From NCBI GenBank assembly GCA_026710625.1, contig JAPOQQ010000004.1:1-32206 (forward strand): 32,206 nt of DNA. The letters are read 5' to 3'. The notes below the pieces were generated by a model that had not been told where the DNA came from, did not search any database, and worked only from the letters and a program-made list of their open reading frames with translations. The stretch comes from Candidatus Dadabacteria bacterium (GTDB lineage Bacteria; Desulfobacterota_D; UBA1144; Nemesobacterales; Nemesobacteraceae). The position numbers were made by a program, and so were the translations under genes. Shown piece by piece: positions 11,695-25,381 of the stretch. Positions within the stretch are counted from its first letter, which is position 1, and every line of letters begins with the position of its first letter.

Positions 11695-14280
11695 GTGCAA
11701 ATGAATTTTAACAGAGGGATCAATCTTGCTGGTAAAGAACCGGGCAAGCTTCCCCGTTTCCGTTTTTTCTTGCCCGCGGCCTTTGCGGTTGCGTGTCTGG
11801 TCGGGACTCTTGCGGTCTATGTCTATTTCTCAAAAGACCTCCCGGACCTGCGTGATCTCACAAGGTATCAACCCGCTATTCTAAATGAGTTCTATTCATC
11901 CGAAGGGGAACTGATAGCGCAGTCCGGGCTTGAGAGAAGGGCGCTTGTAAATCTCGAGGATATGCCACCTCACGTAGTAAACGCCTTCATAGCCGTCGAA
12001 GACAGGAGGTTCTACCAGCACAGCGGCGTGGACGCGAAAAGCGTTGTGAGGGCCCTTTTGCAGAACCTGATTACCGGGAGAATCGTCTCCGGCGGAAGCA
12101 CCATTACGCAGCAGATAACCAAAAACCTCATTCTGGGTCCCGAAAAGGCCTACAGCAGGAAGATAAAAGAAGCTATTCTCTCATACAGGATAGAAAGGAA
12201 TCTCTCCAAGGACGAAATACTCTATTTGTACCTAAACCACATATACCTTGCCGACGGCGTCTACGGGGTTGAGATGGCGAGCCGGAATTACTTCGGAAAA
12301 TCTGCAAAAGACATAAACATAGCCGAGGCGTGCCTGCTGGCGGGAATTCCGCGAAGACCGGAGATGTACTCACCCAGAGTCAATCCCTCCAATGCGCTTA
12401 AAAGGCAGAAAACCGTGATAAACATAATGCACAGCCAGGAGTTCATAACCGACAGACAGAAGCGCAAAGCCCTGGCATACAAGATAAAAATCATTCCGAA
12501 GCGGGAACCCAGAGGGGAATACATAGCCCCTTACTTCATTGAGTACGTAAGGGAATATCTTGAAAAGAAAGTCGGCAGGAAGGCCTACGAGAAGGGCGGT
12601 TACAAGGTTTACACGACCCTTGACATGGACCTGAACCTCGTGGCTTACAGAGCCATAAGAAGGGGAATACGCAACACTGAAAAAAGACAGGGCAGAACCA
12701 GGTTTACCATCGCCAGGCTCAGAACCGTCGAGAAGATCGAAGAATTCAAAGAACAGCAGCGCCACCTCGTTTTTCAGGACGGAAAAACATACAGGGCCGT
12801 TATTACAGTCACGGGAGACGTAGACGGGAAAACTTCTTTTGCGACCGCAGAAGTCGGGGGCGAGAAATGGAAATTCAGATACATAGTCGACCCGGAGAGG
12901 TATCTTCCCCCTCCCGATGGCACCTACCTTCTCCCCGAGAGACTGCAGCCAGGGGACGTTATAAAGGTGAGAGTGTCTGTAAGCGATGAGAAGGTGACCG
13001 ATATAGTTCCCCTGTTTTGGCCGCAGACCCAGGGGGCCCTGGTCGCCATGGACGCGAGGGGCAACGTCATCTCAATGGTGGGGGGGTATAATTTCGGACT
13101 CTCGAAGTTCAATCGGGCTATTCAGGCGAAAAGGCAGCCGGGTTCCGCGTTCAAGCCTTTTCTTTACTCGGCGGCTATAGACAAGGGGTATACGCAGACG
13201 AGCAAGCTTCTTGACGTGCCGATTATCGTGGATGACTGGGTTCCGGAGAACTACGACGAAGAATACATGGGATCGATTTTCTTCAGGGAATCTCTTGTGA
13301 ATTCAAGGAACCTTTCTTCGATCAGGCTTATAATGGACGTAGATCCGCGGTATGTGGCGAGTTATTCCAGGCCCTTCGGGTTTGGGTCCAGAATCAATCC
13401 CTATCCCTCGCTCGCTTTGGGAAGTTCCGAAGTGACTCTGCTGGGAATAACTACGGCATATTCTGTTTTCGCAAATTCCGGGATATACAGGAAACCGAAT
13501 TTCATACTCAGGATCTATGACAGGAACGGAAGCCTGATTGAGGACAACACCGGGGAGGTGTATCTGCGGTACGAGAGGAGGCTTAAGCAGGGCGAGGAGT
13601 CTGGGGAATGGCATTACGAGGAGCGTCTTTCGCCGCAGCCTAGCGAGGGCAGGTCGCAGTTTCTAGGCCTTTTGGCCGAGGACCAAAGAGACTTCGTTAC
13701 CGCGGGGGAGTTCGGGTTTTTTATCAAGAAAGTCCCCATCCATTACTTCGGCAATACGGAAGAGTTTAAGAGGGTTATAAGCCCCGAGACTGCGTATATA
13801 ATGACGGACATGATGAAGGCAGTTATATCGGAGGGAACGGGACTGCTCGCCAATTCGCTTAATTCCAAGGCAAAAATCGCGGGCAAGACAGGGACCACAA
13901 ATGATTATACGGATGCGTGGTTCATAGGATACAGTCCCATGGTTGTCGCCGGAGTGTGGGTTGGAAAGGACGATAACACCTCGCTTGGAGATAAGGAGTC
14001 GGGATCTCTGGCCGCCGTTCCGGTCTGGAAAGAGTTTATGAGCAGGGCGCTTGATAAATACAATGAGCGCAAAGAATTTGAGGTTCCATCCGGCATAAAA
14101 ATCAGGAAGACCCCTCTGGGGGAAATTTCATTCAAGGTCAAGCCGACCATGTCCAAAGACGAGGTGCTCAAGGGATTGAGGATGATGGTAGTAGAATCTG
14201 GGGAAAAGAAAGCGGAGCGCTCACAAGACGATTACAAGAAAATAAGGTCTCTTTTCAAGCGAGATAAGGAAGATGAATAA
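11695..14280 (+). CDS. mrcA: Penicillin-binding protein 1A (bifunctional transglycosylase/transpeptidase)
   Basis: Inner-membrane enzyme that polymerises and cross-links peptidoglycan. The protein is 861 residues from GTG 11695, or 859 from ATG 11701. Numbering here is from the GTG. One transmembrane anchor lies at about 24-45. The GT51 domain has VEDRRFYQHSGVD with catalytic Glu102 and GGSTITQQITKNL at 133-145. An OB-like insert follows at about 330-440. The transpeptidase has SAFK with Ser484 and Lys487, SRN at 537-539 and KTGT at 731-734. All active-site motifs are intact. The end converges on purU. Pieces of a diverged second copy lie at 15477-15674. Confidence 0.96.
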   Translation: MQMNFNRGINLAGKEPGKLPRFRFFLPAAFAVACLVGTLAVYVYFSKDLPDLRDLTRYQPAILNEFYSSEGELIAQSGLERRALVNLEDMPPHVVNAFIAVEDRRFYQHSGVDAKSVVRALLQNLITGRIVSGGSTITQQITKNLILGPEKAYSRKIKEAILSYRIERNLSKDEILYLYLNHIYLADGVYGVEMASRNYFGKSAKDINIAEACLLAGIPRRPEMYSPRVNPSNALKRQKTVINIMHSQEFITDRQKRKALAYKIKIIPKREPRGEYIAPYFIEYVREYLEKKVGRKAYEKGGYKVYTTLDMDLNLVAYRAIRRGIRNTEKRQGRTRFTIARLRTVEKIEEFKEQQRHLVFQDGKTYRAVITVTGDVDGKTSFATAEVGGEKWKFRYIVDPERYLPPPDGTYLLPERLQPGDVIKVRVSVSDEKVTDIVPLFWPQTQGALVAMDARGNVISMVGGYNFGLSKFNRAIQAKRQPGSAFKPFLYSAAIDKGYTQTSKLLDVPIIVDDWVPENYDEEYMGSIFFRESLVNSRNLSSIRLIMDVDPRYVASYSRPFGFGSRINPYPSLALGSSEVTLLGITTAYSVFANSGIYRKPNFILRIYDRNGSLIEDNTGEVYLRYERRLKQGEESGEWHYEERLSPQPSEGRSQFLGLLAEDQRDFVTAGEFGFFIKKVPIHYFGNTEEFKRVISPETAYIMTDMMKAVISEGTGLLANSLNSKAKIAGKTGTTNDYTDAWFIGYSPMVVAGVWVGKDDNTSLGDKESGSLAAVPVWKEFMSRALDKYNERKEFEVPSGIKIRKTPLGEISFKVKPTMSKDEVLKGLRMMVVESGEKKAERSQDDYKKIRSLFKRDKEDE

Positions 14281-15229: not shown

Positions 15230-15262
15230 GATTAGCACCAAGCCCCCTGTAATGAAAATGCC

Positions 15263-15294
15263 ATTATACCTTAAAAAGAGATATAGTCCTACAA
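15263..15294 (-). promoter_or_regulatory. Candidate purU promoter
   Basis: A perfect TATAAT -10 box is present on the minus strand (15268-15263). The nearest -35-like sequence, TTGTAG (15294-15289), is 20 bases away, longer than ideal. A start near 15256 would give a leader carrying the AGGGGG at 15248-15243. It lies immediately beside the scar at 15299. Confidence 0.4.
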
Positions 15295-15298
15295 GTTT

Positions 15299-15478
15299 TT
15301 AAAACAGCCCCCTAAACAATCCCCCGTCAACTTGTATAGTAGTTCCAGTCATGTAACTTGCTTTCTCAGAAGCAAGAAAACAGGCTAGGGCGGCCAGTTC
15401 TTCAGGGGTGCCTATTCTTTGCAGGGGAATATCTTTCTCCATCTCTTCTATGGCTTTTTCGTATTCAATGCCTGATTG
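15299..15478 (-). pseudogene. 3' remnant of a diverged SDR gene copy
   Basis: The minus strand encodes the last 59 residues of a short-chain dehydrogenase ending in [10 protein letters not shown] and a TAA stop. It aligns without gaps to the 3' end of the intact SDR gene (15301-15478 against 21150-21327). I count 27 mismatches in 178 bases, about 85% identity, but only two amino-acid differences. Nearly all changes are therefore synonymous, so this copy diverged while still under selection and was cut off later. The upstream part is missing and is replaced abruptly by PBP1A-related sequence at about 15477. Confidence 0.88.
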
Positions 15479-15674
15479 GGTCCCGGAGAATTACGGCGGT
15501 CACCGTTCCAAATTGGAGAAAGTACATGATCCGGCATAAAAATCAGAAAAATTCCTCTAGGGCAAATTTCATTTAAGGTCAGCCCAACCATGTCCAAGGA
15601 TGAAGTGATCAGGGGATTGAGGATAAAGGTAGGATTTCATCAAGAGAAACCAGAAATGAATGGAAAAGCAGGTA
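15477..15674 (+). pseudogene. Collapsed 3' remnant of a diverged PBP1A gene copy
   Basis: Three blocks of PBP1A-like sequence lie in order. Bases 15477-15498 match 13237-13258 (WVPENY). Bases 15497-15529 match about 14011-14040 (AAVPVWKEFM read as AVTVPNWRKYM). Bases 15529-15632 match 14088-14191 without gaps. In the last block I count 17 mismatches in 104 bases, about 84% identity, encoding SGIKIRKIPLGQISFKV. A further weak match, ATGAAT then AAGCAGGTA, reaches about 15674 and corresponds to the end of the PBP1A gene near 14274-14286. The internal deletions leave it non-functional. The divergence equals that of the adjacent SDR remnant. Confidence 0.85.
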
Positions 15675-15728
15675 TATTTACGGCAACATATTGGCAAGGG
15701 CAAGAATTACTCAGCATGGGATTGTAAC

Positions 15729-16451
15729 ATGGCCGACAGATCTGATATCGAATGGACTGACGCGACATGGAATCCGGTGACGGGCTGCACTAAAATCACG
15801 CGTGGTTGCGACAACTGCTACGCTGCGCGTTTTGCAGAACGATGGCGTGGTGTCAGTGGTCACCCCTACGAACAAGGCTTTGACTTGCGTTTGTGGCCAT
15901 CGCGACTTGATCAGCCATCACGGTGGCGAAAACCTCGTATGATTTTTGTCAATTCGATGAGTGATTTGTTTCATAAACACATCCCGCAATGGTTCATTGA
16001 CGAAGTTTTTCAACAGATGGAAAATGCGGACCACCACATCTATCAGATATTGACGAAACGAAGTTCACTCATGCGGGATTATCTGAAACACAGGTACTCG
16101 GATAGTACGGTTCCGAAGCATATCTGGTGCGGTGTTTCAGTGGAAGACCAAACGGCTACAAGCAGAATTCTGCATCTTCAAACAACACCGGCTACGGTTC
16201 GCTTTTTATCTATTGAACCGCTGTTAGGTCCACTGGGTGATATTGACTTGAAAGGGATTTCGTGGGTTATCGTCGGCGGAGAGAGCGGTCCTGACGCTCG
16301 TTCTTTGCATCTTGATTGGGTTTGCGATATCCGTGATCAGTGTGCCTCAACAGGCGTCCCATTCTTCTTCAAACAATGGGGAGGGCGAACACCCAAGGCT
16401 GGTGGTCGCCAACTTGAAGGTGTAGAACATAACGCTATGCCTAACTACTAA
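15729..16451 (+). CDS. DUF5131 (phage Gp37/Gp68-like) three-Cys-motif protein
   Basis: Member of the DUF5131 family, found in phages and accessory regions; its molecular function is not established as far as I know. The protein is 240 residues from ATG 15729. The in-frame ATG at 15660 is rejected because it lies in the PBP1A remnant and would add unrelated residues. The family hallmark is present at 14-31: WNPVTGCTKITRGCDNCY with Cys20, Cys27 and Cys30, spaced C-x6-C-x2-C and suggesting an iron-sulfur or zinc site. Further family segments are FVNSMSDLFH, ILTKR, WCGVSVEDQ, FLSIEPLLG, WVIVGGESGP and PFFFKQWGG. The ribosome binding site is weak. The partner gene tcmP follows after 15 bases. Confidence 0.88.
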   Translation: MADRSDIEWTDATWNPVTGCTKITRGCDNCYAARFAERWRGVSGHPYEQGFDLRLWPSRLDQPSRWRKPRMIFVNSMSDLFHKHIPQWFIDEVFQQMENADHHIYQILTKRSSLMRDYLKHRYSDSTVPKHIWCGVSVEDQTATSRILHLQTTPATVRFLSIEPLLGPLGDIDLKGISWVIVGGESGPDARSLHLDWVCDIRDQCASTGVPFFFKQWGGRTPKAGGRQLEGVEHNAMPNY

Positions 16452-16466
16452 ACGGAGGAATTATTC

Positions 16467-17723
16467 ATGTCTTCTTTCGAGTGGCATCCTAGTGAGCCAC
16501 CCCCTCAGATTGAACCACATAGCAAGGCGAAACTGGAGGTGTTGCGCAGATACATCCAGGAATATTTCGATAAGTTGAACGTCTATCCGCAACGGGAGGA
16601 ATTCAGGTTTGATCTAATCGATGGTTTTGCCGGAGGCGGCACATTTCATGATGGAAATACTGAAATCTCAGGTACGCCCTTGGTCATGTTAGAGGAAGCA
16701 GAAAAAGCGGAAGAGCGTTTAAACAGGAAACGGAAAAAGCAACTACACATCAATTGTAAATTCTATTTTGTTGACAAAGAAAGAGCTCATACGGATCACC
16801 TTAGAAAAGTTCTCAGAGAGCGTGGATATAAGATTGATGAAGAGAAAATTGTTGTCCGAACCGGTCTTTTCGAGAATGAAGTCAAAGATATTCTCCGTTC
16901 AATTAAACAAAGACAGCCTCGTATTGGACGTGCCATTTTTCTTCTCGATCAGACCGGTTTCTCTCAGGTGGAATTATCGCTCGTCTATAGGATTTTGAAC
17001 GAGTTGCCAGCCGCCGAAGTCATACTGACATTTGCTGCAGATGCACTTGTCAATCATCTGGCAGAAACACCTGAGATGGTCAAGGCGGTTTCCCCGCTTC
17101 AACTGACTGAATCATACATAGGAGACCTGATACAATATAAGGAAAGGGCTGGTGGAAGGGCCCTAGTTCAGAGGACGTTGCGCAATCATATAAGGACAGT
17201 GACCGGGGCAGAATATGACACTCCATTTTTTATTCGCCCTAGAGAGTCTCGCCGTGCACTATGGTTTCTCCATCTGTCAAGACATCCTACCGCGCGAGAT
17301 GTCATGATTCAACTGCATTGGGATATTCAGAATAGGTTTGAGCATTATGGTCCCGGCGACTTCAGTATGCTAGGGTGGGATGCATTAAGAGACTCCTCAA
17401 ATCTGCATTTGTTTCGATTCGGCGATCTTGACAAGAAACAGATGCAAGACCAGCTTTTGGACTCACTTCCAGAGAAGTTATATAGTTTGATATCTGAACA
17501 GCCTATTACCGTAGATGCGATGCGTCATATATTTGCAAATCAGACTGCCGCTCGATTTTCCGATCTTGATCAGATTGTCCTTCAGCTTGTTAGAGAAAAA
17601 GAGTTTCAAATTCTAGATCCAGAAGGCAAAGTGCGTTCACGGTTGCTAAAGCATTTGAAGCCTACGGACCTAATTGCGCTACCTCCAACTTTATTACTTC
17701 CGGGATTCTCTCGCATACGGTGA
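16467..17723 (+). CDS. tcmP: Three-Cys-motif partner protein TcmP
   Basis: TcmP proteins are defined by their association with DUF5131 genes. The protein is 418 residues with a strong GGAGG ribosome binding site ten bases before the ATG. The N-terminal half looks like a Rossmann-fold methyltransferase: FDLIDGFAGGGTF at 48-60 resembles a SAM-binding loop. FYFVDKE at 99-105 has an acidic residue at the expected end of strand two, and AIFLLDQTGFSQV at 156-168 occupies the catalytic-motif position. This assignment is my inference from motif order. The C-terminal half (about 250-418) is helical and unassigned. It converges on the ORF ending at 17843. Confidence 0.82.
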   Translation: MSSFEWHPSEPPPQIEPHSKAKLEVLRRYIQEYFDKLNVYPQREEFRFDLIDGFAGGGTFHDGNTEISGTPLVMLEEAEKAEERLNRKRKKQLHINCKFYFVDKERAHTDHLRKVLRERGYKIDEEKIVVRTGLFENEVKDILRSIKQRQPRIGRAIFLLDQTGFSQVELSLVYRILNELPAAEVILTFAADALVNHLAETPEMVKAVSPLQLTESYIGDLIQYKERAGGRALVQRTLRNHIRTVTGAEYDTPFFIRPRESRRALWFLHLSRHPTARDVMIQLHWDIQNRFEHYGPGDFSMLGWDALRDSSNLHLFRFGDLDKKQMQDQLLDSLPEKLYSLISEQPITVDAMRHIFANQTAARFSDLDQIVLQLVREKEFQILDPEGKVRSRLLKHLKPTDLIALPPTLLLPGFSRIR

Positions 17724-17747
17724 ATTTCCTTTTTGGTAATTATTTTA

Positions 17748-17770
17748 GGTCAAATCTCCAGATGGAGACC
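17748..17770. other. Small bulged hairpin between convergent genes
   Basis: GGT plus CTCCA at 17748-17760 can pair with TGGAGACC at 17763-17770, leaving a five-base bulge. It lies in the 119-base gap between tcmP and the convergent unknown ORF. No U-tract follows on the plus strand, so a terminator role is weakly supported. The rest of the gap shows no gene. Confidence 0.2.
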
Positions 17771-17842
17771 ACTTCCTTGCCAGCACCATGCTCTTCCCCC
17801 TATTTGAATACTCTTATCTCAAAAGAATGCTTCTCTCTGGGG

Positions 17843-18256
17843 TCAAGTTTGGTCGGGATTTAACGTATTATATTGGGGAATATAGAAACTCACGGACTTA
17901 ATCAGTGTGTCCAATTGAGCTACGGTGCAGGGACTCATATAAGGGAATAGAAAGCCCATAAAGGTTTTTTTTGAACCTTTATGGTAAAAAAAGTCGTTGA
18001 GATTGTAAGAAAGTAATACCTTGATGTTACGACCGTTTTTTAGAGTAACAAGAAATATTTTGTTCTGGTAATCTTTCACTAGCTGTATGGGGAAATTATC
18101 TGACTCTACACGACATGATATAGTTGGGGATAAATGAAGAACCACCTTGATCGGACAAGGTTCCCGCAAACGTAAGTTCTCTATATGAGTGATACTTGTA
18201 TTTTCCAAGAAAATTGGCTCATTTGGTTTCGGAGGAGGATTATTTAAGAACATCAT
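17843..18256 (-). CDS. Unknown small protein coupled to the type IIG enzyme
   Basis: A 137-residue ORF I do not recognise. Its ATG overlaps the stop of the type IIG gene in an ATGA arrangement, so it is almost certainly translated from the same mRNA. It has no signal peptide, membrane segment, helix-turn-helix or zinc-binding cysteine pair that I can see. The composition suggests mostly beta strands (IKVVLHLSPTISCRV, KIFLVTLKNGRNIKVLLSY), followed by a hydrophobic GFLFPYMSP segment and a short tail. It could be a specificity or stability partner, a nuclease inhibitor, or a degraded fragment of a longer protein. No family evidence decides between these. Confidence 0.6.
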   Translation of the reverse strand: MMFLNNPPPKPNEPIFLENTSITHIENLRLREPCPIKVVLHLSPTISCRVESDNFPIQLVKDYQNKIFLVTLKNGRNIKVLLSYNLNDFFYHKGSKKTFMGFLFPYMSPCTVAQLDTLIKSVSFYIPQYNTLNPDQT

Positions 18257-21081
18257 TGCTTTCTACTTTTTGAAACGGCTTTCCTCTTTCGCTTTATTGG
18301 CTTTATCTCAGTTTCTAGGGGCGCCCGATTCTTTTCGTAAAGCATGAACAGATGTTCGACACGTTCACGCTCTGAAGTGAAGCCGGTGTGGCGATAGAAT
18401 CTATCTACGGTTCGGTCAAGAACTTGATGTGCGTGGCGCAGACTAGGGGGCATCAAGTTAGGATCATAGAGATTAGCTAATGTAGTGTCTGGATAAGCCA
18501 TACGGGCGTCGAGAACGGCTTGTGCCAACGGTTCAAGTCTCGACATGTCTTTACCTTGCGGGGGCAATGGAAAAGTGTTGTAGACTACTCCGACGGAGTA
18601 CATGTAATCGCTTTTCATGCGTCCGGCCACGGTTCGTAACCAAGCCATGTGCATAGCTGAAGTCAGCAACGCGAAATCCACAAGAGTAGCATCGGGAAGC
18701 AGGCGAAGCTTATTGCTTGGGATTACTGGTGGTTCGAGCCAACCGATGGGGACATACTCCCGCCGTTCCGAACTGACCTCTGGAATGACCAGAAACGGGG
18801 CCGTGGGGAGAACTTCGACATTGTATCGAGTTGGGAAATCAGCAATTGCTAGAGTGCTCTTGCGTTTGCTCTTCAATCTGTAATTGCGAACTAAGGCCAT
18901 ACGTTTTCGAACATTCGGCAATTTTTTTAGTACATTTGGTGATGCCTCTTGCAAAGCCAGTATCCAGCGCTCACTACCCTGTAAATACTCGCGGGCACCA
19001 ACATAGGGTCGCATAAAAGATACTGCCTCTGGTTCATCTTCTAAAAACAAAATACGTTCCTCTGCATTGAAAATATAGTGGCCATTATCTATTGGTTGTG
19101 TACCACTTGCTAATTTTGTCATCCCGTTGATTGGTTTGCTCTCCTCGCAAACCGTTATATGGGGGTTAGAAAGTCCAGCAGCATCAAACAGATAGGGTGA
19201 AAGCACCTTGTGCCGGGTTTCCTCTGGTTCGCCATTAATGTCAGGGTAGCTGGACAGGCGTTTTTCCGGTTTTGCTTTTTCCCGTCTATCCAGCCCGATG
19301 ATTACGACATGGACGTGTGCTTTGCCCCGCACGTCAGAACCCCAGGCGAAGGTCCGGTGGGCAAAGCTGATTTCGAGCTTGAGACGGTCAAACAACACCG
19401 GCCAAAGTTGTGCCACCTGCTCGCCCTGCGTAATGGAATTAGTCGCCACGAATCCGATTCGCGCCGAGGTGTTTTGAACATGTTCTCCGGCTTTTATAAA
19501 CCAGGCGGCGACATAATCCAGACTGCCGCCGCTTTTACCCAGACCGGCTACTTTGCGAACTTGCGCGCGCTGGTCAGGTGTCTGAAATTTCGCGCCCACA
19601 AAAGGCGGATTGCCGAACAGATAGTCGCAGCGCTCCGGTGGCAGAATCTCGGTCCAGTCGGTCTCCAAGGCGTCTCCGTGTCGAATATTGGGCGATTCTT
19701 TCAGCGGAATACGTGCGTAAGTCTCCCCGAACTCTAGGCTCAACCGGTTATTCATGATATGGTCCATCATCCAAAGGGCGGTCTCGGCGACCCTCACCGG
19801 GAATTCACCGAGTTCAATACCGTAGAACTGGTTCACATTCACCAGGGAGAGTATCTCCATGTAAAATTCTCTCTGTCGTCCTGATCTGGTTTCCGTCGTG
19901 CGGATTTCACGCGTGCGAAGCTCACGGATTACCTCTATTTCAAGCAGACGGATTTCTCTGTAAGCGATGATCAGAAAGTTCCCGCAGCCACAGGCCGGAT
20001 CGAAAAAGGTAAGGCTGCCGAGCTTCTTCTGAAACTCCCGAAGCCGTTTTTCGCGGTTGTTCTTCAATGCCTTGATTTTCTCGAATTCAGCGCGGAGTTC
20101 ATCAAGAAACAGCGGTTCAATCACCTTGAGGATGTTTTTCTCAGTAGTGTAGTGCGCGCCTTGGGCGCGACGCTCGACCGGTTCCATGACCGACTGGAAA
20201 AGCGCGCCGAAAATCGCGGGAGATATGTTCGACCAGTCAAAATAACAGGCCTCAAGCAGCCGCTCGCGCATTGTTTTGGTAAAAGAAGGGATACGCAGGG
20301 GTTCACGGAAAAGGTCGCCGTTTATGTAGGGAAAGCCCGCGAGGTCTTCGTCAAGCGTTGTAGAACGCTCGTCATCCGGCGTATCCAGAACCTGGAAAAG
20401 CTGGGCAAGCAGAGGCCCCAGATCAGAACCGTCTTCCCTGGTACGTGTCTCGATGAAATCTAGGAACATGTCGCGCGGCTCGAAAATACCTGTGTCGTCG
20501 GCAAACAGGCAGAAAACGATCCGTACCAGGAAGCGTTCTAGGTCGTGGCCGCGATACCCCGCCTCATCAAGCGCGTAGTGCAACCGCCCGACAAGTTCAG
20601 CCGCCTTGACATTGACCGGGTCTTGGTCGCGGAAAGTCTTGCGTTCCACACCGATAATAAATCCGAACTTCTCAACATGGGTTGAAAGGTCAGGCAACGT
20701 AAAACGAAGCAGCTTCCTTTCGTCACGGTCGAGAAATTCGAAGTTTTGGAAATCGCTTACGAGTATGTAACGCGGGCGGTCTTTTTCAGGCAAAGCATCA
20801 AAGTAATCTCCTGCCTGCTTGCGGGCGGGATTCAGATCACGACCTGCGCTTTTTTGTTCGACCAGCAGCATCCCCGGCCAGAACAAGTCAATGAATCCCG
20901 AACTGTTATCCAGTTTCTGCACATGTTCTTCGTAACGTGCGACAGAACGGCGTTTAACGCCGAATATTTCAAAAAAATCGTTGTAGAAACTTTGCATTTC
21001 TCCTTTCTCGTAGGAAGCATCCGCCCATTGGCGAGAGAACTCGGCTGCACGACTTCGGATTTCATTCCAGGATAAGCGCAT
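18253..21081 (-). CDS. MmeI-like type IIG restriction-modification enzyme
   Basis: A single 942-residue polypeptide, close to MmeI in length, predicted to both cut and methylate DNA. The N-terminal nuclease has Asp65 in FIDLFWPG and Glu75-x-Lys77 in LLVEQKSAG, the D-x9-E-x-K spacing known from MmeI. The adenine-N6 methyltransferase core has the SAM motif FFDPACGCGNF (Asp361) and the catalytic motif NPPF at 491-494, followed by GKSGGSLDYVAAWF. The region from about 620 to 850 should hold the target-recognition domain. Such enzymes methylate one strand for self-protection. No Shine-Dalgarno precedes the ATG; a TATAAA lies five bases upstream. Confidence 0.9.
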   Translation of the reverse strand: MRLSWNEIRSRAAEFSRQWADASYEKGEMQSFYNDFFEIFGVKRRSVARYEEHVQKLDNSSGFIDLFWPGMLLVEQKSAGRDLNPARKQAGDYFDALPEKDRPRYILVSDFQNFEFLDRDERKLLRFTLPDLSTHVEKFGFIIGVERKTFRDQDPVNVKAAELVGRLHYALDEAGYRGHDLERFLVRIVFCLFADDTGIFEPRDMFLDFIETRTREDGSDLGPLLAQLFQVLDTPDDERSTTLDEDLAGFPYINGDLFREPLRIPSFTKTMRERLLEACYFDWSNISPAIFGALFQSVMEPVERRAQGAHYTTEKNILKVIEPLFLDELRAEFEKIKALKNNREKRLREFQKKLGSLTFFDPACGCGNFLIIAYREIRLLEIEVIRELRTREIRTTETRSGRQREFYMEILSLVNVNQFYGIELGEFPVRVAETALWMMDHIMNNRLSLEFGETYARIPLKESPNIRHGDALETDWTEILPPERCDYLFGNPPFVGAKFQTPDQRAQVRKVAGLGKSGGSLDYVAAWFIKAGEHVQNTSARIGFVATNSITQGEQVAQLWPVLFDRLKLEISFAHRTFAWGSDVRGKAHVHVVIIGLDRREKAKPEKRLSSYPDINGEPEETRHKVLSPYLFDAAGLSNPHITVCEESKPINGMTKLASGTQPIDNGHYIFNAEERILFLEDEPEAVSFMRPYVGAREYLQGSERWILALQEASPNVLKKLPNVRKRMALVRNYRLKSKRKSTLAIADFPTRYNVEVLPTAPFLVIPEVSSERREYVPIGWLEPPVIPSNKLRLLPDATLVDFALLTSAMHMAWLRTVAGRMKSDYMYSVGVVYNTFPLPPQGKDMSRLEPLAQAVLDARMAYPDTTLANLYDPNLMPPSLRHAHQVLDRTVDRFYRHTGFTSERERVEHLFMLYEKNRAPLETEIKPIKRKRKAVSKSRKQ

Positions 21082-21086
21082 GGCGG

Positions 21087-21116
21087 TTTATATTTTCAAT
21101 CGAAATGCTTCCATAA
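21087..21116 (-). promoter_or_regulatory. Candidate promoter abutting the type IIG start
   Basis: On the minus strand, TATAAA ends five bases before the ATG at 21081, and a weak TTATGG -35-like element lies 18 bases further upstream. A start at the usual distance would coincide with the ATG. An alternative AT-rich block (TATATATAAC) lies further upstream, so the assignment is tentative. Confidence 0.25.
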
Positions 21117-21147
21117 TCGGGTGGTTATATATATTATGAAAATGAGA

Positions 21148-21327
21148 TCAAAACAGTCCTTTGAGAAGTCCTCCGTCTACTTGGATAGTTGTCCCAGTCA
21201 TGTAGCTTGCTTTTTCGGAAGCAAGAAAGCAGGCTAGGGCGGCTAACTCCTCAGGAGTTCCTATTCTTTGCAGGGGAATATCCTTCTCCATCTCTTCTAT
21301 GGCTTTTTCATATTCAATACCCGACTG
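21148..21327 (-). repeat. Right-hand member of the imperfect direct repeat flanking the island
   Basis: This 3' end of the intact SDR gene repeats 15299-15478 in the same orientation at about 85% identity. The two copies bracket the accessory genes from about 15675 to 21081. Homologous recombination between them would delete the island and leave a whole hybrid SDR gene. Confidence 0.8.
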
Positions 21328-22564: not shown

Positions 22565-23191
22565 TTAGACAATTATAACTATTGCTCTTCCTGGGCCATG
22601 AACTCCAAGAGTAAGATTAAGTTCTATGTCGGCCGTCCTGCTCGGTCCAGTTATAAAAGAAATACACGTACATAATTCATCATAATTTTTTTTGTAAGAT
22701 TTTCCTAGCTTTGCAAACAGAGCATGAATATTCGAAACTATGGTTTCCTTTTTAAGTATCGCGATGTGCACAGGAGGCAGAAGCGAAGTAAGTCTCGGCT
22801 GCTCTGGACCGGACAGCAAGACTAAAGTCCCTGTGTCAGCAATAGCGAAATCAGCTCCAGTTATTCCTATATCTGCGCTTGCGAGATCAGTTTCATGGGT
22901 AAGTTCAAGTGATTTCAAGGGTTCTGTATTCCAGAAGGAAACCGACTGAGCATCAAATTCCCGGATAAGTTCGTTTATTTTGTCAATCAATCTTCCTTTT
23001 TCTTCAAGAAGATGAACTTCTCCGGACACCATTTTAAAGTTTGCTATAAAATCGTTTTGTAACTTGCTTTGATCAATAGATAATTGAGGGTTTAAAAAAG
23101 TCTTTTCCGTACTTTTGCTTATCCCTTTCTCTTCTGTTGCTATAGAACTTAAGTTTTGTAGTATAACTTCCTTGGATTCTTTCAAAATCAT
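22565..23191 (-). CDS. lutC: Lactate utilization protein C (LUD domain)
   Basis: Third subunit of the LutABC lactate oxidation system, a soluble LUD-domain protein. The start is placed at ATG 23191, one base after the lutB stop (TAAGATG), giving 208 residues. The longer open frame back to 23320 lies inside lutB and adds 43 residues unlike the family. LUD landmarks are ADIGITGADFAIADTGTLVLLSGPEQPRL, PPVHIAIL and the C-terminal FITGPSRTADIELNLTLGVHGPG, which carries the conserved GPSRTADIE signature. Synthesis probably depends on translational coupling with lutB, because no strong Shine-Dalgarno is seen. Confidence 0.92.
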   Translation of the reverse strand: MILKESKEVILQNLSSIATEEKGISKSTEKTFLNPQLSIDQSKLQNDFIANFKMVSGEVHLLEEKGRLIDKINELIREFDAQSVSFWNTEPLKSLELTHETDLASADIGITGADFAIADTGTLVLLSGPEQPRLTSLLPPVHIAILKKETIVSNIHALFAKLGKSYKKNYDELCTCISFITGPSRTADIELNLTLGVHGPGRAIVIIV

Positions 23192-23192
23192 C

Positions 23193-24632
23193 TTACTGGT
23201 GTTCCATTTTTGCCGAATATTTCTCTTTCCATCTTCGTCTGAAGGGTTTTTTCGAGAAAGCAGGAAAGTTTTTTTCTTTAGTCCACTTTGAAAAAGGATA
23301 TGGAAGCCCCTGTAATTCATTCTCTTTTTGGTAGAAATACTGCAGAAAGACCATCATTCTCCCTGCAAGATTATAGTAAAACGGCTTGCTGAAAACAAAA
23401 CTCCAGATCCGAAAAGCCATTTTCTCCATAAATTGTGCCGGATTTGGCTTTCCTTTGGTTTTTTCCACTACCCTCTGCCTCAGAGAAAGAAGAACATGAG
23501 GAAAATCGATTTTTACCGGGCATACATCCCTGCAAGCTCCACAAAGAGAGGATGCAAATGGCAGATCCGCGGTTTTTTGCAAATCGTTTAACTGGGGGGT
23601 TATTACGGCCCCTATCGGCCCCGAGTAAACCCATCCGTAGCTGTGCCCCCCTACTTGCCTGTATACCGGGCATATATTGATGCAAGCTCCGCATCTTATA
23701 CAGTAAAGTGATTCTCTGGTTTCTTTTGACTTTGCTATGTCGCTTCTTCCGTTATCAAGAAAGACCAGGTGAAACTGCCGGGGACCATCACTCTCCCCTT
23801 CCCTTCTGGGACCCGTTATGAGAGAAACGTAGGTGGAGGATTTCTGACCCGTAGCGCTTCTCGCCAGCAGGCTCAAAAAAATGGAGAGCTGTTCAAACTT
23901 GGGTACGATCTTTTCTATTCCCATGATAGCTACGTGTATGTCTGGATACGTAGTTGCCAGTCTGGCGTTGCCCTCGTTTTCCACGATTGTTATCGTTCCC
24001 GTTTCGGCTACGGCGAAATTAACTCCGGAAATCCCCATATCGGCCGAGAGAAACTTCTCTCTAAGCTCTTTTCTTGCTATGTTGGTGAGTTCCTGGGGTT
24101 CTTCATACTCAGGCACTCCGAATTTCTCGGAGAAAAGCTTCGATATGTCCTCTTTGGTTTTGTGGATTGCGGGGGTAATTATGTGAAAGGGATGATCATT
24201 GCAAAGCTGCACTATGTACTCTCCGAGGTCTGTCTCTACCGTGTTTATCCCGCTCGATATGAGGTGCCTGTTAAGTTCTATCTCCTCTGTGGCCATTGAT
24301 TTGCTTTTCACGACGTTTCGGACGTTGTTTTCTCTGGCTATATTGACCACTATTGAGGAGGCTTCTTCGGCATTTTTTGCCCAGTGTACCTTGCCCCCTA
24401 CCCTGGTAACGCTTTCTTCAAGCTCCAAAAGATAGCTATCCAGGTTGTTGATTACCTGTTCTTTTATTCGCCTGGCTTCAGATCTGAGTTCTTCCCACTC
24501 GGAAACCTCGCTTATCGCTTTTTTCCTGGAGTTTCTTGATCTGTCAGTGAAATTCACAAGAGCTTTTTTCAGTTTTGGGCTTTTGAGAGCCTCTGCGGAA
24601 TTTTTCTTGAAGTCTATGCGTTCAGTAATCAT
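23193..24632 (-). CDS. lutB: Lactate utilization protein B (iron-sulfur, LUD domain)
   Basis: Iron-sulfur subunit of L-lactate oxidation to pyruvate, 479 residues. The N-terminal LUD domain includes VKSKSMATEEIELN at 108-121 and SADMGISGVNFAVAETGT at 196-213. Two ferredoxin-type clusters follow: Cys311, Cys314, Cys317 and Cys321 in CIRCGACINICP, and Cys364, Cys367 and Cys371 in CGACRDVCP. GGHSYGWVYSGPIGAV between them is conserved in LutB. The start overlaps the lutA stop by four bases (ATGA). Confidence 0.95.
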   Translation of the reverse strand: MITERIDFKKNSAEALKSPKLKKALVNFTDRSRNSRKKAISEVSEWEELRSEARRIKEQVINNLDSYLLELEESVTRVGGKVHWAKNAEEASSIVVNIARENNVRNVVKSKSMATEEIELNRHLISSGINTVETDLGEYIVQLCNDHPFHIITPAIHKTKEDISKLFSEKFGVPEYEEPQELTNIARKELREKFLSADMGISGVNFAVAETGTITIVENEGNARLATTYPDIHVAIMGIEKIVPKFEQLSIFLSLLARSATGQKSSTYVSLITGPRREGESDGPRQFHLVFLDNGRSDIAKSKETRESLYCIRCGACINICPVYRQVGGHSYGWVYSGPIGAVITPQLNDLQKTADLPFASSLCGACRDVCPVKIDFPHVLLSLRQRVVEKTKGKPNPAQFMEKMAFRIWSFVFSKPFYYNLAGRMMVFLQYFYQKENELQGLPYPFSKWTKEKNFPAFSKKPFRRRWKEKYSAKMEHQ

Positions 24633-25381
24633 TTAGTGTCCTCAAAGGCAATGAGCTCGGCCAGATGAAGCACTTTTACGGGCATTTTCTTTCTGGATAT
24701 AAGTCCCTTTATATTCATAAGGCATCCCATATCGGTCGAAACTACAGCGTCTGCCCCTGAATCCAGGATCGAGTCTGTTTTTTCCTGAAGCATGGATTTT
24801 GATACTTCCGGATACTTAATTGAAAAAGTTCCTCCAAAGCCGCAGCAGGCATCAGCCATCTCCATTTCAACAAGTTCAACTCCGTTTAGGGACTTGATAA
24901 GTTCGCGAGGCTGAGAGTTTATCCCGAGTTCTCTGAGCGTATGGCAGGAGTCATGAAACGTAACCCTGCCCCTATATGCCGAGTTAAGACTGAGAGTTTC
25001 TTTTCGCTGGAAAACAAATTCTGAGAACTCATAAATGTTGGATGAAATCTTCTCCACGCGGGACAGTTTTTCGGGGTCATTACGGAAAAGTTCCGGGTAA
25101 TAGTGTTTTACCATGGATACACATGAACCCGAGGGACACACGATTGCTTCATCCCCGTCGCCAAAGACATCGAGAAAATGAGAGGCGACTTTTTCGGTTT
25201 CTTTTCTGTGACCGGAGTTAAAAGCAGGCTGTCCGCAACATGTCTGGTTTTGCGGAAATTTGACTTCCAGCCCCATGCCTGAGAGAACTTTCAGCATCGC
25301 TTCTCCTACTTGGGGAAAAAAATTATCTACAAGGCAGCTTATGAAAAGACGGATTCTCTGTTTTTTTTCGGGCAGGGTCAT
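24629..25381 (-). CDS. lutA: Lactate utilization protein A (CCG-domain iron-sulfur protein)
   Basis: First subunit of LutABC, 250 residues, resembling the CCG-repeat part of glycolate oxidase GlcF and heterodisulfide reductase HdrB. Two cysteine-rich repeats are visible: Cys48-Cys49-Gly50 in QTCCGQPAFNSG, and Cys179-Cys180-Gly181 in ADACCGFGGTFSIKYPEVS. Each has an upstream cysteine partner (FISCLVDNFFP near residue 16; FHDSCHTLRELG near 146). Together these form the ligands for a [4Fe-4S] centre. It is the first gene of the lutABC operon and is divergent from the HIT gene. Confidence 0.94.
   Translation of the reverse strand: MTLPEKKQRIRLFISCLVDNFFPQVGEAMLKVLSGMGLEVKFPQNQTCCGQPAFNSGHRKETEKVASHFLDVFGDGDEAIVCPSGSCVSMVKHYYPELFRNDPEKLSRVEKISSNIYEFSEFVFQRKETLSLNSAYRGRVTFHDSCHTLRELGINSQPRELIKSLNGVELVEMEMADACCGFGGTFSIKYPEVSKSMLQEKTDSILDSGADAVVSTDMGCLMNIKGLISRKKMPVKVLHLAELIAFEDTK

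What the first reader, a model, noticed from the sequence alone, without database searches (positions are those of the whole stretch)
15729..17723. DUF5131-TcmP module: a recurrent gene pair of unknown function
A C-x6-C-x2-C protein of the phage Gp37/Gp68-like family sits 15 bases upstream of its partner TcmP, which appears to carry a SAM-methyltransferase-like fold. The pair is next to a restriction-modification enzyme and a recombination scar. The recurrent coupling is recognised in family names, but I know of no demonstrated function. A metal-site enzyme plus a methyltransferase-like partner suggests nucleic-acid modification or anti-phage defence.
Basis: partly seen in the sequence, partly recalled or inferred. 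Interest (0 to 1): 0.78.

Follow-up and report, generated by a model that had tools for sequence, protein, structure and literature searches.

The report
Mobile radical-SAM plus methyltransferase gene pair
Two neighbouring genes, found side by side in many microbes and on mobile DNA, appear to encode a radical-chemistry enzyme and a partner that methylates DNA or RNA, probably as part of defences against viruses and other invading DNA, but what they modify has not been shown.

Summary
DUF5131 (15729-16451) and TcmP (16467-17723) are intact, 15 bp apart, in an island with an MmeI-like type IIG restriction-modification gene. The island fills a purU/SDR insertion hotspot and carries two recombination scraps. 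The nearest named genome is a Candidatus Dadabacteria assembly.

New here:
- DUF5131's model best matches spore photoproduct lyase, viperin and other radical-SAM enzymes (Z up to 13.3).
- TcmP's model best matches the rRNA m6A methyltransferase RlmJ (Z 16.2); RlmJ's catalytic Lys and Asp align with conserved TcmP residues.
- TcmP lies within 800 bp of DUF5131 in 68 of 80 loci, in one reading frame with it in two.
- On three haloarchaeal plasmids a canonical-type radical-SAM gene takes DUF5131's place.
- Similar DUF5131 proteins can carry unrelated-looking TcmPs.

The pair is already catalogued: NCBIfam names TcmP; PADLOC lists candidate systems PDC-M30/M41. I propose a constant radical-SAM enzyme plus an exchangeable adenine-methylase partner that modify a nucleic-acid base. 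Substrate, chemistry and defence role are inferred.

The parts
15303..15480 (-). Scar 1: partial copy of the 3' end of the neighbouring SDR gene, between purU and the island
   Evidence: 15320-15469 matches 21169-21318 at 88.7%; the outer edges 15303 and 15480 were read by eye; shared with G012
15529..15632 (+). Scar 2: partial copy of the 3' end of the pbp1A gene
   Evidence: matches 14088-14191 at 83.7% over 104 bp
15664..17850 (+). Two-gene unit: the stretch that recurs at a different genomic place in relative G006
   Evidence: matches L057 9395-11580 at 87.2% over 2187 columns
15729..16451 (+). DUF5131 gene, spore-photoproduct-lyase-like radical-SAM fold, C20-x6-C27-x2-C30
16452..16466 (+). 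15-bp gap with a GGAGG ribosome-binding-site-like sequence before the TcmP start
   Evidence: read by eye
16467..17723 (+). TcmP gene: RlmJ-like methyltransferase domain (Lys22, Asp161) and a C-terminal region with a sub-threshold winged-helix match (residues 319-387)
17843..18256 (-). orf137, probably a shortened relative of a 455-aa gene at the same place in G012
   Evidence: 60% over 110 aa; no family match
18253..21081 (-). MmeI-type IIG restriction-modification enzyme; associated by place, not part of the two-gene unit
   Evidence: MmeI relatives at the same site in G008, G011 and (as two ORFs) G012

Best explanation
The pair is a mobile two-enzyme nucleic-acid modification module carried as defence-island cargo. 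TcmP binds its target, probably helped by its C-terminal winged-helix-like region, and methylates an exocyclic amine, most likely adenine N6 in RNA or DNA, using Lys22 and Asp161 as RlmJ uses Lys18 and Asp164. DUF5131 binds a [4Fe-4S] cluster through Cys20/27/30, cleaves SAM to a 5'-deoxyadenosyl radical and acts on the same base, perhaps on the methylated product, as a radical-SAM enzyme does after methylation in wyosine synthesis. DUF5131 is the constant part and TcmP the exchangeable, target-setting part. The mark helps the carrier in conflicts with phages or other mobile elements. Shown by sequence or model: pairing, shared reading frames, folds, conserved residues, partner replacement, hotspot location. 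Inferred: cluster, radical chemistry, substrate, order of steps, benefit.
For: Radical-SAM fold: pLDDT 90.4; spore photoproduct lyase Z 13.3 (rmsd 3.0, 194 aligned), viperins 11.5, RlmN 10.9; by my knowledge the first 40 rows are all radical-SAM enzymes and the best other row has Z 8.4. Three Cys in 78 of 78. TcmP: pLDDT 87.5; RlmJ Z 16.2 (rmsd 2.9, 213 aligned), Trm1 14.4; hhalign to four RlmJ sequences E 1.1e-6, prob 90.9, placing K22 and D161 on RlmJ's Lys and Asp; D161 in 63 of 63, K22 in 62 of 62 rows with a letter there; mutation of those RlmJ residues to Ala abolishes activity (abstract and passages of PMC3814359). Coupling: 68 of 80 loci, two of them in one reading frame. On all 3 haloarchaeal plasmid records that matched a haloarchaeal TcmP, a radical-SAM gene of PF04055 type precedes TcmP. 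Partner replacement: 9 of 22 locus pairs with DUF5131 at least 80% identical have TcmPs without a blastp hit at E<1e-3. Defence context.
Against: DUF5131 lacks canonical CX3CX2C spacing and does not match PF04055; its profile alignment to the haloarchaeal radical-SAM proteins is weak (prob 18.6) and to spore photoproduct lyases insignificant. Foldseek alone gives it no match at E<=0.001. The window TcmP reads D-Q-T-G, not DPPY, and Foldseek ranks Trm1 before RlmJ. DUF5131 also occurs without a nearby TcmP: 12 of 80 loci (two at contig ends, two with TcmP 1.6 and 3.0 kb away), a B. glumae conjugation operon and phage Bakery; the haloarchaeal radical-SAM gene also occurs without an annotated TcmP, and other haloarchaeal plasmids carry DUF5131. 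Several loci show no defence neighbours (G013, G025; L192, L195). Control neighbourhoods also gave PADLOC matches, 22 families against 109. The two shared reading frames are in metagenome bins, where an error could remove a stop. No substrate was tested.
Confidence: 0.45

Rival explanations
1. The pair modifies the cell's own rRNA or tRNA and so shields translation from toxins or antibiotics in inter-bacterial or plasmid conflicts, rather than acting in phage defence.
For: The nearest folds are rRNA/tRNA enzymes: RlmJ and Trm1 for TcmP, RlmN among the matches for DUF5131. Copies beside transposase, ICE or integrase genes on plasmids.
Against: TcmP is extremely variable (19% mean column identity) and replaceable, which is odd for an enzyme that acts on invariant rRNA.
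Confidence: 0.2
2. The pair marks the mobile element's own DNA or RNA, as self-protection or anti-restriction for the phage or plasmid that carries it; nearby restriction enzymes are rivals, not partners.
For: Convergent pair in phage Jablanski, near integrase and immunity-repressor genes; plasmid copies; a neighbouring restriction gene in a LexA/RecT-bearing stretch.
Against: The 80 loci come from genome assemblies, though plasmid or prophage contigs among them are not excluded; the local hotspot lies on a 1.59-Mb contig in G006. Only one phage record matched the window TcmP at E 1e-3, which may reflect divergence.
Confidence: 0.15
3. DUF5131 is a DNA-damage reversal enzyme of the spore photoproduct lyase type and TcmP guides it to lesions.
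For: Spore photoproduct lyase is the top structural match. One B. glumae pair lies a few kb from a DNA polymerase Y family gene and an error-prone DNA polymerase gene.
Against: TcmP keeps the catalytic pair of a methyltransferase, not needed for photoproduct reversal. No sequence match to the SPL family PF20903.
Confidence: 0.1
4. Toxin-antitoxin-like: TcmP methylation is harmful or signals infection and DUF5131 neutralises or erases it.
For: Variable partner beside a constant one; toxin-type genes stand nearby in some loci (HipA in G006; AbiE).
Against: Here the supposed antitoxin is the conserved partner and the supposed toxin the variable one; DUF5131 occurs alone.
Confidence: 0.1

Closest known systems
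NCBIfam TIGR04474 three-Cys-motif partner TcmP with Pfam PF07505 DUF5131 (phage Gp37/Gp68 family)
   Same: This is that pair: both models are met well above cut-off.
   Different: The curated names give no function; the window copy has D-Q-T-G where 48 of 63 relatives have D-P.
PADLOC candidate systems PDC-M30 and PDC-M41
   Same: Both proteins match the A and B components. PDC-M30 was predicted in 32 strains of a 100-strain P. aeruginosa panel, 68.8% of the 32 phage resistant (passages of PMC10855318).
   Different: Candidates without characterisation, as that paper says; the window TcmP matches the A models only moderately (best E 1.1e-18).
RlmJ, 23S rRNA m6A2030 methyltransferase
   Same: Closest fold by Z and aligned catalytic Lys and Asp.
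   Different: No PF04378 match for the window protein, D-[PQ]-x-G instead of DPPY, and a C-terminal region with a sub-threshold winged-helix match.
Spore photoproduct lyase and viperin (radical-SAM enzymes)
   Same: Closest folds to DUF5131.
   Different: Six instead of three residues between the first two cysteines; no PF20903 or PF04055 match.
Radical SAM mobile pair protein A (TIGR04471)
   Same: DUF5131 matches it at E 7.6e-22, the best curated link to radical-SAM proteins.
   Different: 77.9 bits against a cut-off of 355; its named partner is protein B, not TcmP.
Trm5 plus Taw1/TYW1 (wyosine synthesis)
   Same: A radical-SAM enzyme abstracts hydrogen from an already methylated base, m1G (passages of PMC7761594; that Trm5 makes the m1G is recalled). 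Proposed as a working analogy only.
   Different: No sequence relation was tested.

Membership tests
TcmP (TIGR04474) | Score above the curated cut-off | tested here: met
   198.8 bits against 53
DUF5131 (PF07505) | Score above the gathering score | tested here: met
   322.7 bits against 28.9
PDC-M30/M41 candidate defence system | Adjacent genes matching the A and B models | tested here: met
   B: 7.7e-101 (M41B) and 4.1e-100 (M30B); A: 1.1e-18 (M30A) and 1.4e-12 (M41A). PADLOC's own system rules and thresholds were not run, and M30 and M41 are not told apart
PDC-M30/M41 candidate defence system | Protects against phage | not testable with these tools
   needs an experiment
Radical SAM superfamily | Partial TIM-barrel radical-SAM fold | tested here: met
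   Z up to 13.3; best row that is not radical SAM 8.4
Radical SAM superfamily | Three invariant cysteines near the N-terminus that could hold a [4Fe-4S] cluster | tested here: met
   78 of 78; an alignment places them on the canonical motif with a three-residue insertion, weakly
Radical SAM superfamily | Canonical CX3CX2C spacing and PF04055 match | tested here: not met
   C-x6-C-x2-C; no PF04055 at E up to 1. So I say radical-SAM-like fold, not proven member
Radical SAM superfamily | SAM cleavage to a 5'-deoxyadenosyl radical | not testable with these tools
   needs an assay
Spore photoproduct lyase (PF20903) | Family profile match | tested here: not met
   not among matches at E up to 1
RlmJ (PF04378) | Family profile match and DPPY motif | tested here: not met
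   no PF04378 match; D-Q-T-G in the window, D-P 48 and D-Q 15 of 63
RlmJ (PF04378) | Catalytic Lys of motif X and Asp of motif IV | tested here: met
   K22 and D161 aligned; 62 of 62 rows with a letter and 63 of 63
RlmJ (PF04378) | Inserted helical subdomain | not tested
   no model coordinates were on hand to compare

The most novel reading that the evidence does not exclude
A modular base-modification system new in kind: one nearly constant radical-SAM enzyme works with interchangeable RlmJ-like adenine methylases, each setting a different target, so that methylation followed by radical chemistry makes a still unknown hypermodified base used in microbial defence. Some haloarchaeal plasmids run the same module with a canonical radical-SAM protein.
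Probability: 0.25. Interest if true: 0.9.

Novelty: new member of a known kind. Interest (0 to 1): 0.6.

Why it matters
The pair occurs in many bacterial phyla and in archaea, and tblastn with the window's DUF5131 matched 405 plasmid and 161 phage records, some of them radical SAM mobile pair protein A; yet no function turned up in the papers searched. Two concrete enzyme hypotheses with named residues (Cys20/27/30; Lys22, Asp161), natural fusions and natural partner swaps turn a pair of unknown function into one testable by a single expression and mass-spectrometry experiment. A new nucleic-acid base or a new defence chemistry could follow.

Tried and rejected
MAFFT alignment of the fused proteins with single-domain rows put TcmP rows on the radical-SAM half (motif aspartate matched in 0 of 61), so no complex was modelled and the interface is untested. 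Sequence profiles against the PDB gave nothing for DUF5131 and only E 0.57-1.6 for RlmJ and its Legionella homologue with TcmP, below unrelated hits. The viral structure library gave general methyltransferases and little else for TcmP. No E. coli genome matched the P. aeruginosa plasmid pair at DNA level. Pfam scans of neighbours showed little: Phage_integrase in 3 of 126 around pairs and not among the 25 of 145 families shown for 121 control proteins. The PADLOC scans give families, not proteins, and only 25 of 109 were shown, so 109 against 22 is a weak comparison. hhalign of DUF5131 to spore photoproduct lyase sequences was insignificant (a first try used a wrong reading frame for L185). 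Rampant transfer between phyla was rejected: the tree needs 20 label changes against 43.5 in shuffles, so the family largely follows phyla, although the window copy groups with a Pseudomonadales and a Synechococcus bin at 100/98 support; binning errors are not excluded. L071 and L072 first looked like a partner swap but share a TcmP (70% identical) once all copies are compared. One of five RlmJ loci (L181) was not used because my ORF caller missed it.

Full report
What is there. DUF5131 runs 15729-16451 (+) and TcmP 16467-17723 (+), with 15 bp between. Curated models name both: PF07505 E 2e-96 and TIGR04474 E 1.5e-58. PADLOC-DB matches them as the two parts of candidate defence systems PDC-M41/PDC-M30. 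The next large gene, 18253-21081 (-), is an MmeI-type IIG restriction-modification enzyme. The nearest named relative is a Candidatus Dadabacteria assembly (OX638332.1); its length and match position fit those of the unnamed same-genus genome G006.

The place. Between purU and the island lie a copied piece of the SDR gene (88.7% over 150 bp) and a copied piece of the pbp1A gene (83.7% over 104 bp). In the genus the purU/SDR junction is empty (about 60-70 bp) in 5 of 13 genomes (G001, G002, G005, G006, G007) and filled in G000, G008 and G011; in G012 the two sides lie on different contigs, each with part of the island. For the other four (G003, G004, G009, G010) the two searches did not give both genes at this site. 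All four filled sites carry an MmeI relative (in G012 as two ORFs), and two of the four (G000, G012) carry the pair. G008 adds bSEFIR, an Avs-like NACHT protein and a Schlafen-type protein. In G006 the site is empty but the pair sits elsewhere: window 15664-17850 matches L057 9395-11580 at 87%, among HipA, DUF4238 and FRG-domain genes. That comparison defines a two-gene unit without the restriction enzyme. In G007 a distant pair in reversed order stands beside another restriction-modification gene. The loci of G013 and G025 show no such neighbours that I could name.

Coupling. With a TcmP profile that I built by iteration from these and the genus loci, TcmP lies within 800 bp in 68 of 80: 46 downstream, 17 upstream, 3 on the opposite strand, 2 in one reading frame with DUF5131 (L100, L119). 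Of the 12 others, L102 and L108 end at a contig edge, and L070 and L079 have a TcmP 1.6 and 3.0 kb away. The TcmP halves of the two fusions pass the TIGR04474 cut-off; their DUF5131 halves are 59% and 58% identical to the window's and match TIGR04471 below its cut-off. Both fusions are in metagenome bins. The sample favours close relatives of the query.

DUF5131. The model is confident (mean pLDDT 90.4, pTM 0.88). Among solved structures the best matches are spore photoproduct lyase (Z 13.3, rmsd 3.0, 194 residues), then viperins (11.5), SuiB (11.1) and RlmN (10.9); the best row that is not a radical-SAM enzyme has Z 8.4 (which rows are radical SAM is partly recalled). Foldseek itself gives spore photoproduct lyase first, but only at E 7e-3. 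The three cysteines are invariant (78 of 78), and Cys205 is present in 77 of 78. The spacing C-x6-C-x2-C is not canonical and PF04055 is not matched. An independent hint comes from haloarchaeal plasmids. In Haloarcula JP-L23 the gene just upstream of TcmP matches PF04055 and has a CX3CX2C motif. Its 82% identical relative precedes TcmP in Halopiger, and match coordinates show the same in Natribaculum. These are all 3 haloarchaeal records of the 32 that matched the Haloarcula TcmP. In H. taiwanensis the same radical-SAM gene has no annotated TcmP beside it, and two other haloarchaeal plasmids carry DUF5131 (H17, H20). A profile alignment lays the DUF5131 cysteines on the haloarchaeal motif with a three-residue insertion, but the score is weak (E 1.3e-3, prob 18.6).

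TcmP. The model is confident (pLDDT 87.5, pTM 0.89). By Z the ten best matches are RlmJ and its Legionella homologue (16.2-15.5), then Trm1 (14.4-13.0), then others at or below 12.9; Foldseek ranks Trm1 first and RlmJ second. Profile-to-profile alignment to four RlmJ sequences gives E 1.1e-6, prob 90.9, and puts Lys22 and Asp161 on RlmJ's motif X lysine and motif IV aspartate. In E. coli RlmJ these are Lys18 and Asp164; mutation to Ala abolishes activity (abstract and passages of PMC3814359). Asp161 is present in 63 of 63 aligned TcmPs and Lys22 in 62 of 62 rows with a letter there. Motif IV reads D-P in 48 and D-Q in 15; the window has D-Q-T-G. Two weak TcmP hits (E 7e-4) overlap RlmJ genes found. 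A winged-helix model matches the C-terminal part below its cut-off (E 0.0017) and a relative, L059, above it (4.3e-7).

Constant and variable parts. Mean column identity is 51% for DUF5131 (78 rows) and 19% for TcmP (63 rows). Of 22 locus pairs whose DUF5131 proteins are at least 80% identical, 9 have TcmPs without a blastp hit at E<1e-3 and 13 have a hit; L081 and L088 share 92% in DUF5131. The nine pairs are not independent: they rest on seven loci (L081, L084, L085, L087, L088, L142, L143), of which L081 and L084 lie in one genome. The six tested partners (L081, L085, L087, L088, L142, L143) all pass the TIGR04474 cut-off. In Halopiger and Natribaculum the radical-SAM proteins are 82% and 84% identical to the Haloarcula one while the TcmPs are 28% identical to its TcmP. 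This pattern suggests that TcmP sets the target while the radical-SAM enzyme supplies a common reaction.

Mobility and surroundings. tblastn with the window's DUF5131 matched 405 plasmid records and 161 phage records. I picked hits by hand and read 19 annotated plasmid stretches that contain TcmP. A DUF5131 or radical-SAM gene is annotated beside TcmP in 17 of 19. Names I read as defence-related lie in the stretch in 7 of 19 (restriction endonuclease; CBASS; methyltransferase with helicase and GIY-YIG nuclease; DUF262; caspase-like and dGTPase; AbiE; CHAT with helicase). Integrase, transposition or conjugation names lie in the stretch in 13 of 19. These counts have no control. A further stretch and phage Bakery carry DUF5131 without TcmP. 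In phage Jablanski the pair is convergent and lies near integrase and immunity-repressor genes (both confirmed by models). With controls from the same contigs, 126 proteins around 18 pairs matched 109 PADLOC families at E 1e-15 and 121 control proteins matched 22; ORFs were called mechanically, proteins over 1100 aa were dropped from both sets, and families are not proteins.

Interpretation. The best-supported account is a two-enzyme nucleic-acid modification module. TcmP probably methylates an exocyclic amine, with adenine N6 the first guess from RlmJ; the Trm1 similarity leaves guanine open. DUF5131 probably performs radical chemistry on the same target. Wyosine synthesis is a precedent for a radical-SAM enzyme acting on a methylated base (passages of PMC7761594). 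The role in defence rests on context and on PADLOC's candidate listing. One survey predicted PDC-M30 in 32 strains of a 100-strain P. aeruginosa panel, 68.8% of the 32 phage resistant (passages of PMC10855318); that is a correlation. Another lists two PDC-M30 copies in PA14 (passage of PMC11878078). In S. meliloti a TcmP gene (SMa2243) follows the Hna defence gene SMa2245 in an expression table (passage of PMC12445080).

Novelty. The pair as such is known and named, and is already a defence candidate; the window copy is a new member. I found no paper that gives a function: searches, read as listings plus passages of a few papers, in a licence-limited library that lacks most subscription papers. 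The RlmJ-type catalytic residues, the partner replacement and the canonical radical-SAM substitute on haloarchaeal plasmids did not turn up there either.

Noticed in passing
window 15241-21148; L052-L055, L063-L067: The purU/SDR junction is an insertion hotspot in this Dadabacteria genus: empty in five of 13 genomes, holding restriction-modification and other defence-type genes in four.
   Followed up: partly
window 17843-18256: orf137 looks like a shortened relative of a 455-aa gene without a Pfam match that stands beside MmeI in G012 (L055 1576-2943).
   Followed up: partly
L009 (G005), L010 (G009): DUF5131 matches with internal stops in two genomes of the genus suggest loss of the module.
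   Followed up: no
L193, L196, L197: Three haloarchaeal plasmids carry two divergent radical-SAM genes; in L193 and L197 TcmP follows one of them, in L196 no TcmP is annotated there.
   Followed up: partly
L190 (B. glumae plasmid): A DUF5131-TcmP pair beside a further radical-SAM gene and a few kb from a DNA polymerase Y family gene and an error-prone DNA polymerase gene.
   Followed up: no
L175, L176, L191, L173, L071, L073: Two TcmP genes close together, in all but L173 beside one annotated or matched DUF5131 gene.
   Followed up: partly
L170 (B. glumae plasmid), L172 (Gordonia phage Bakery): DUF5131 without TcmP inside a conjugation operon and inside a phage replication region: a second lifestyle of the family.
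   Followed up: no
window 22565-25381: Lactate-utilisation genes (LUD-domain protein, LutB-type iron-sulphur protein, cysteine-rich-domain protein), ordinary.
   Followed up: no
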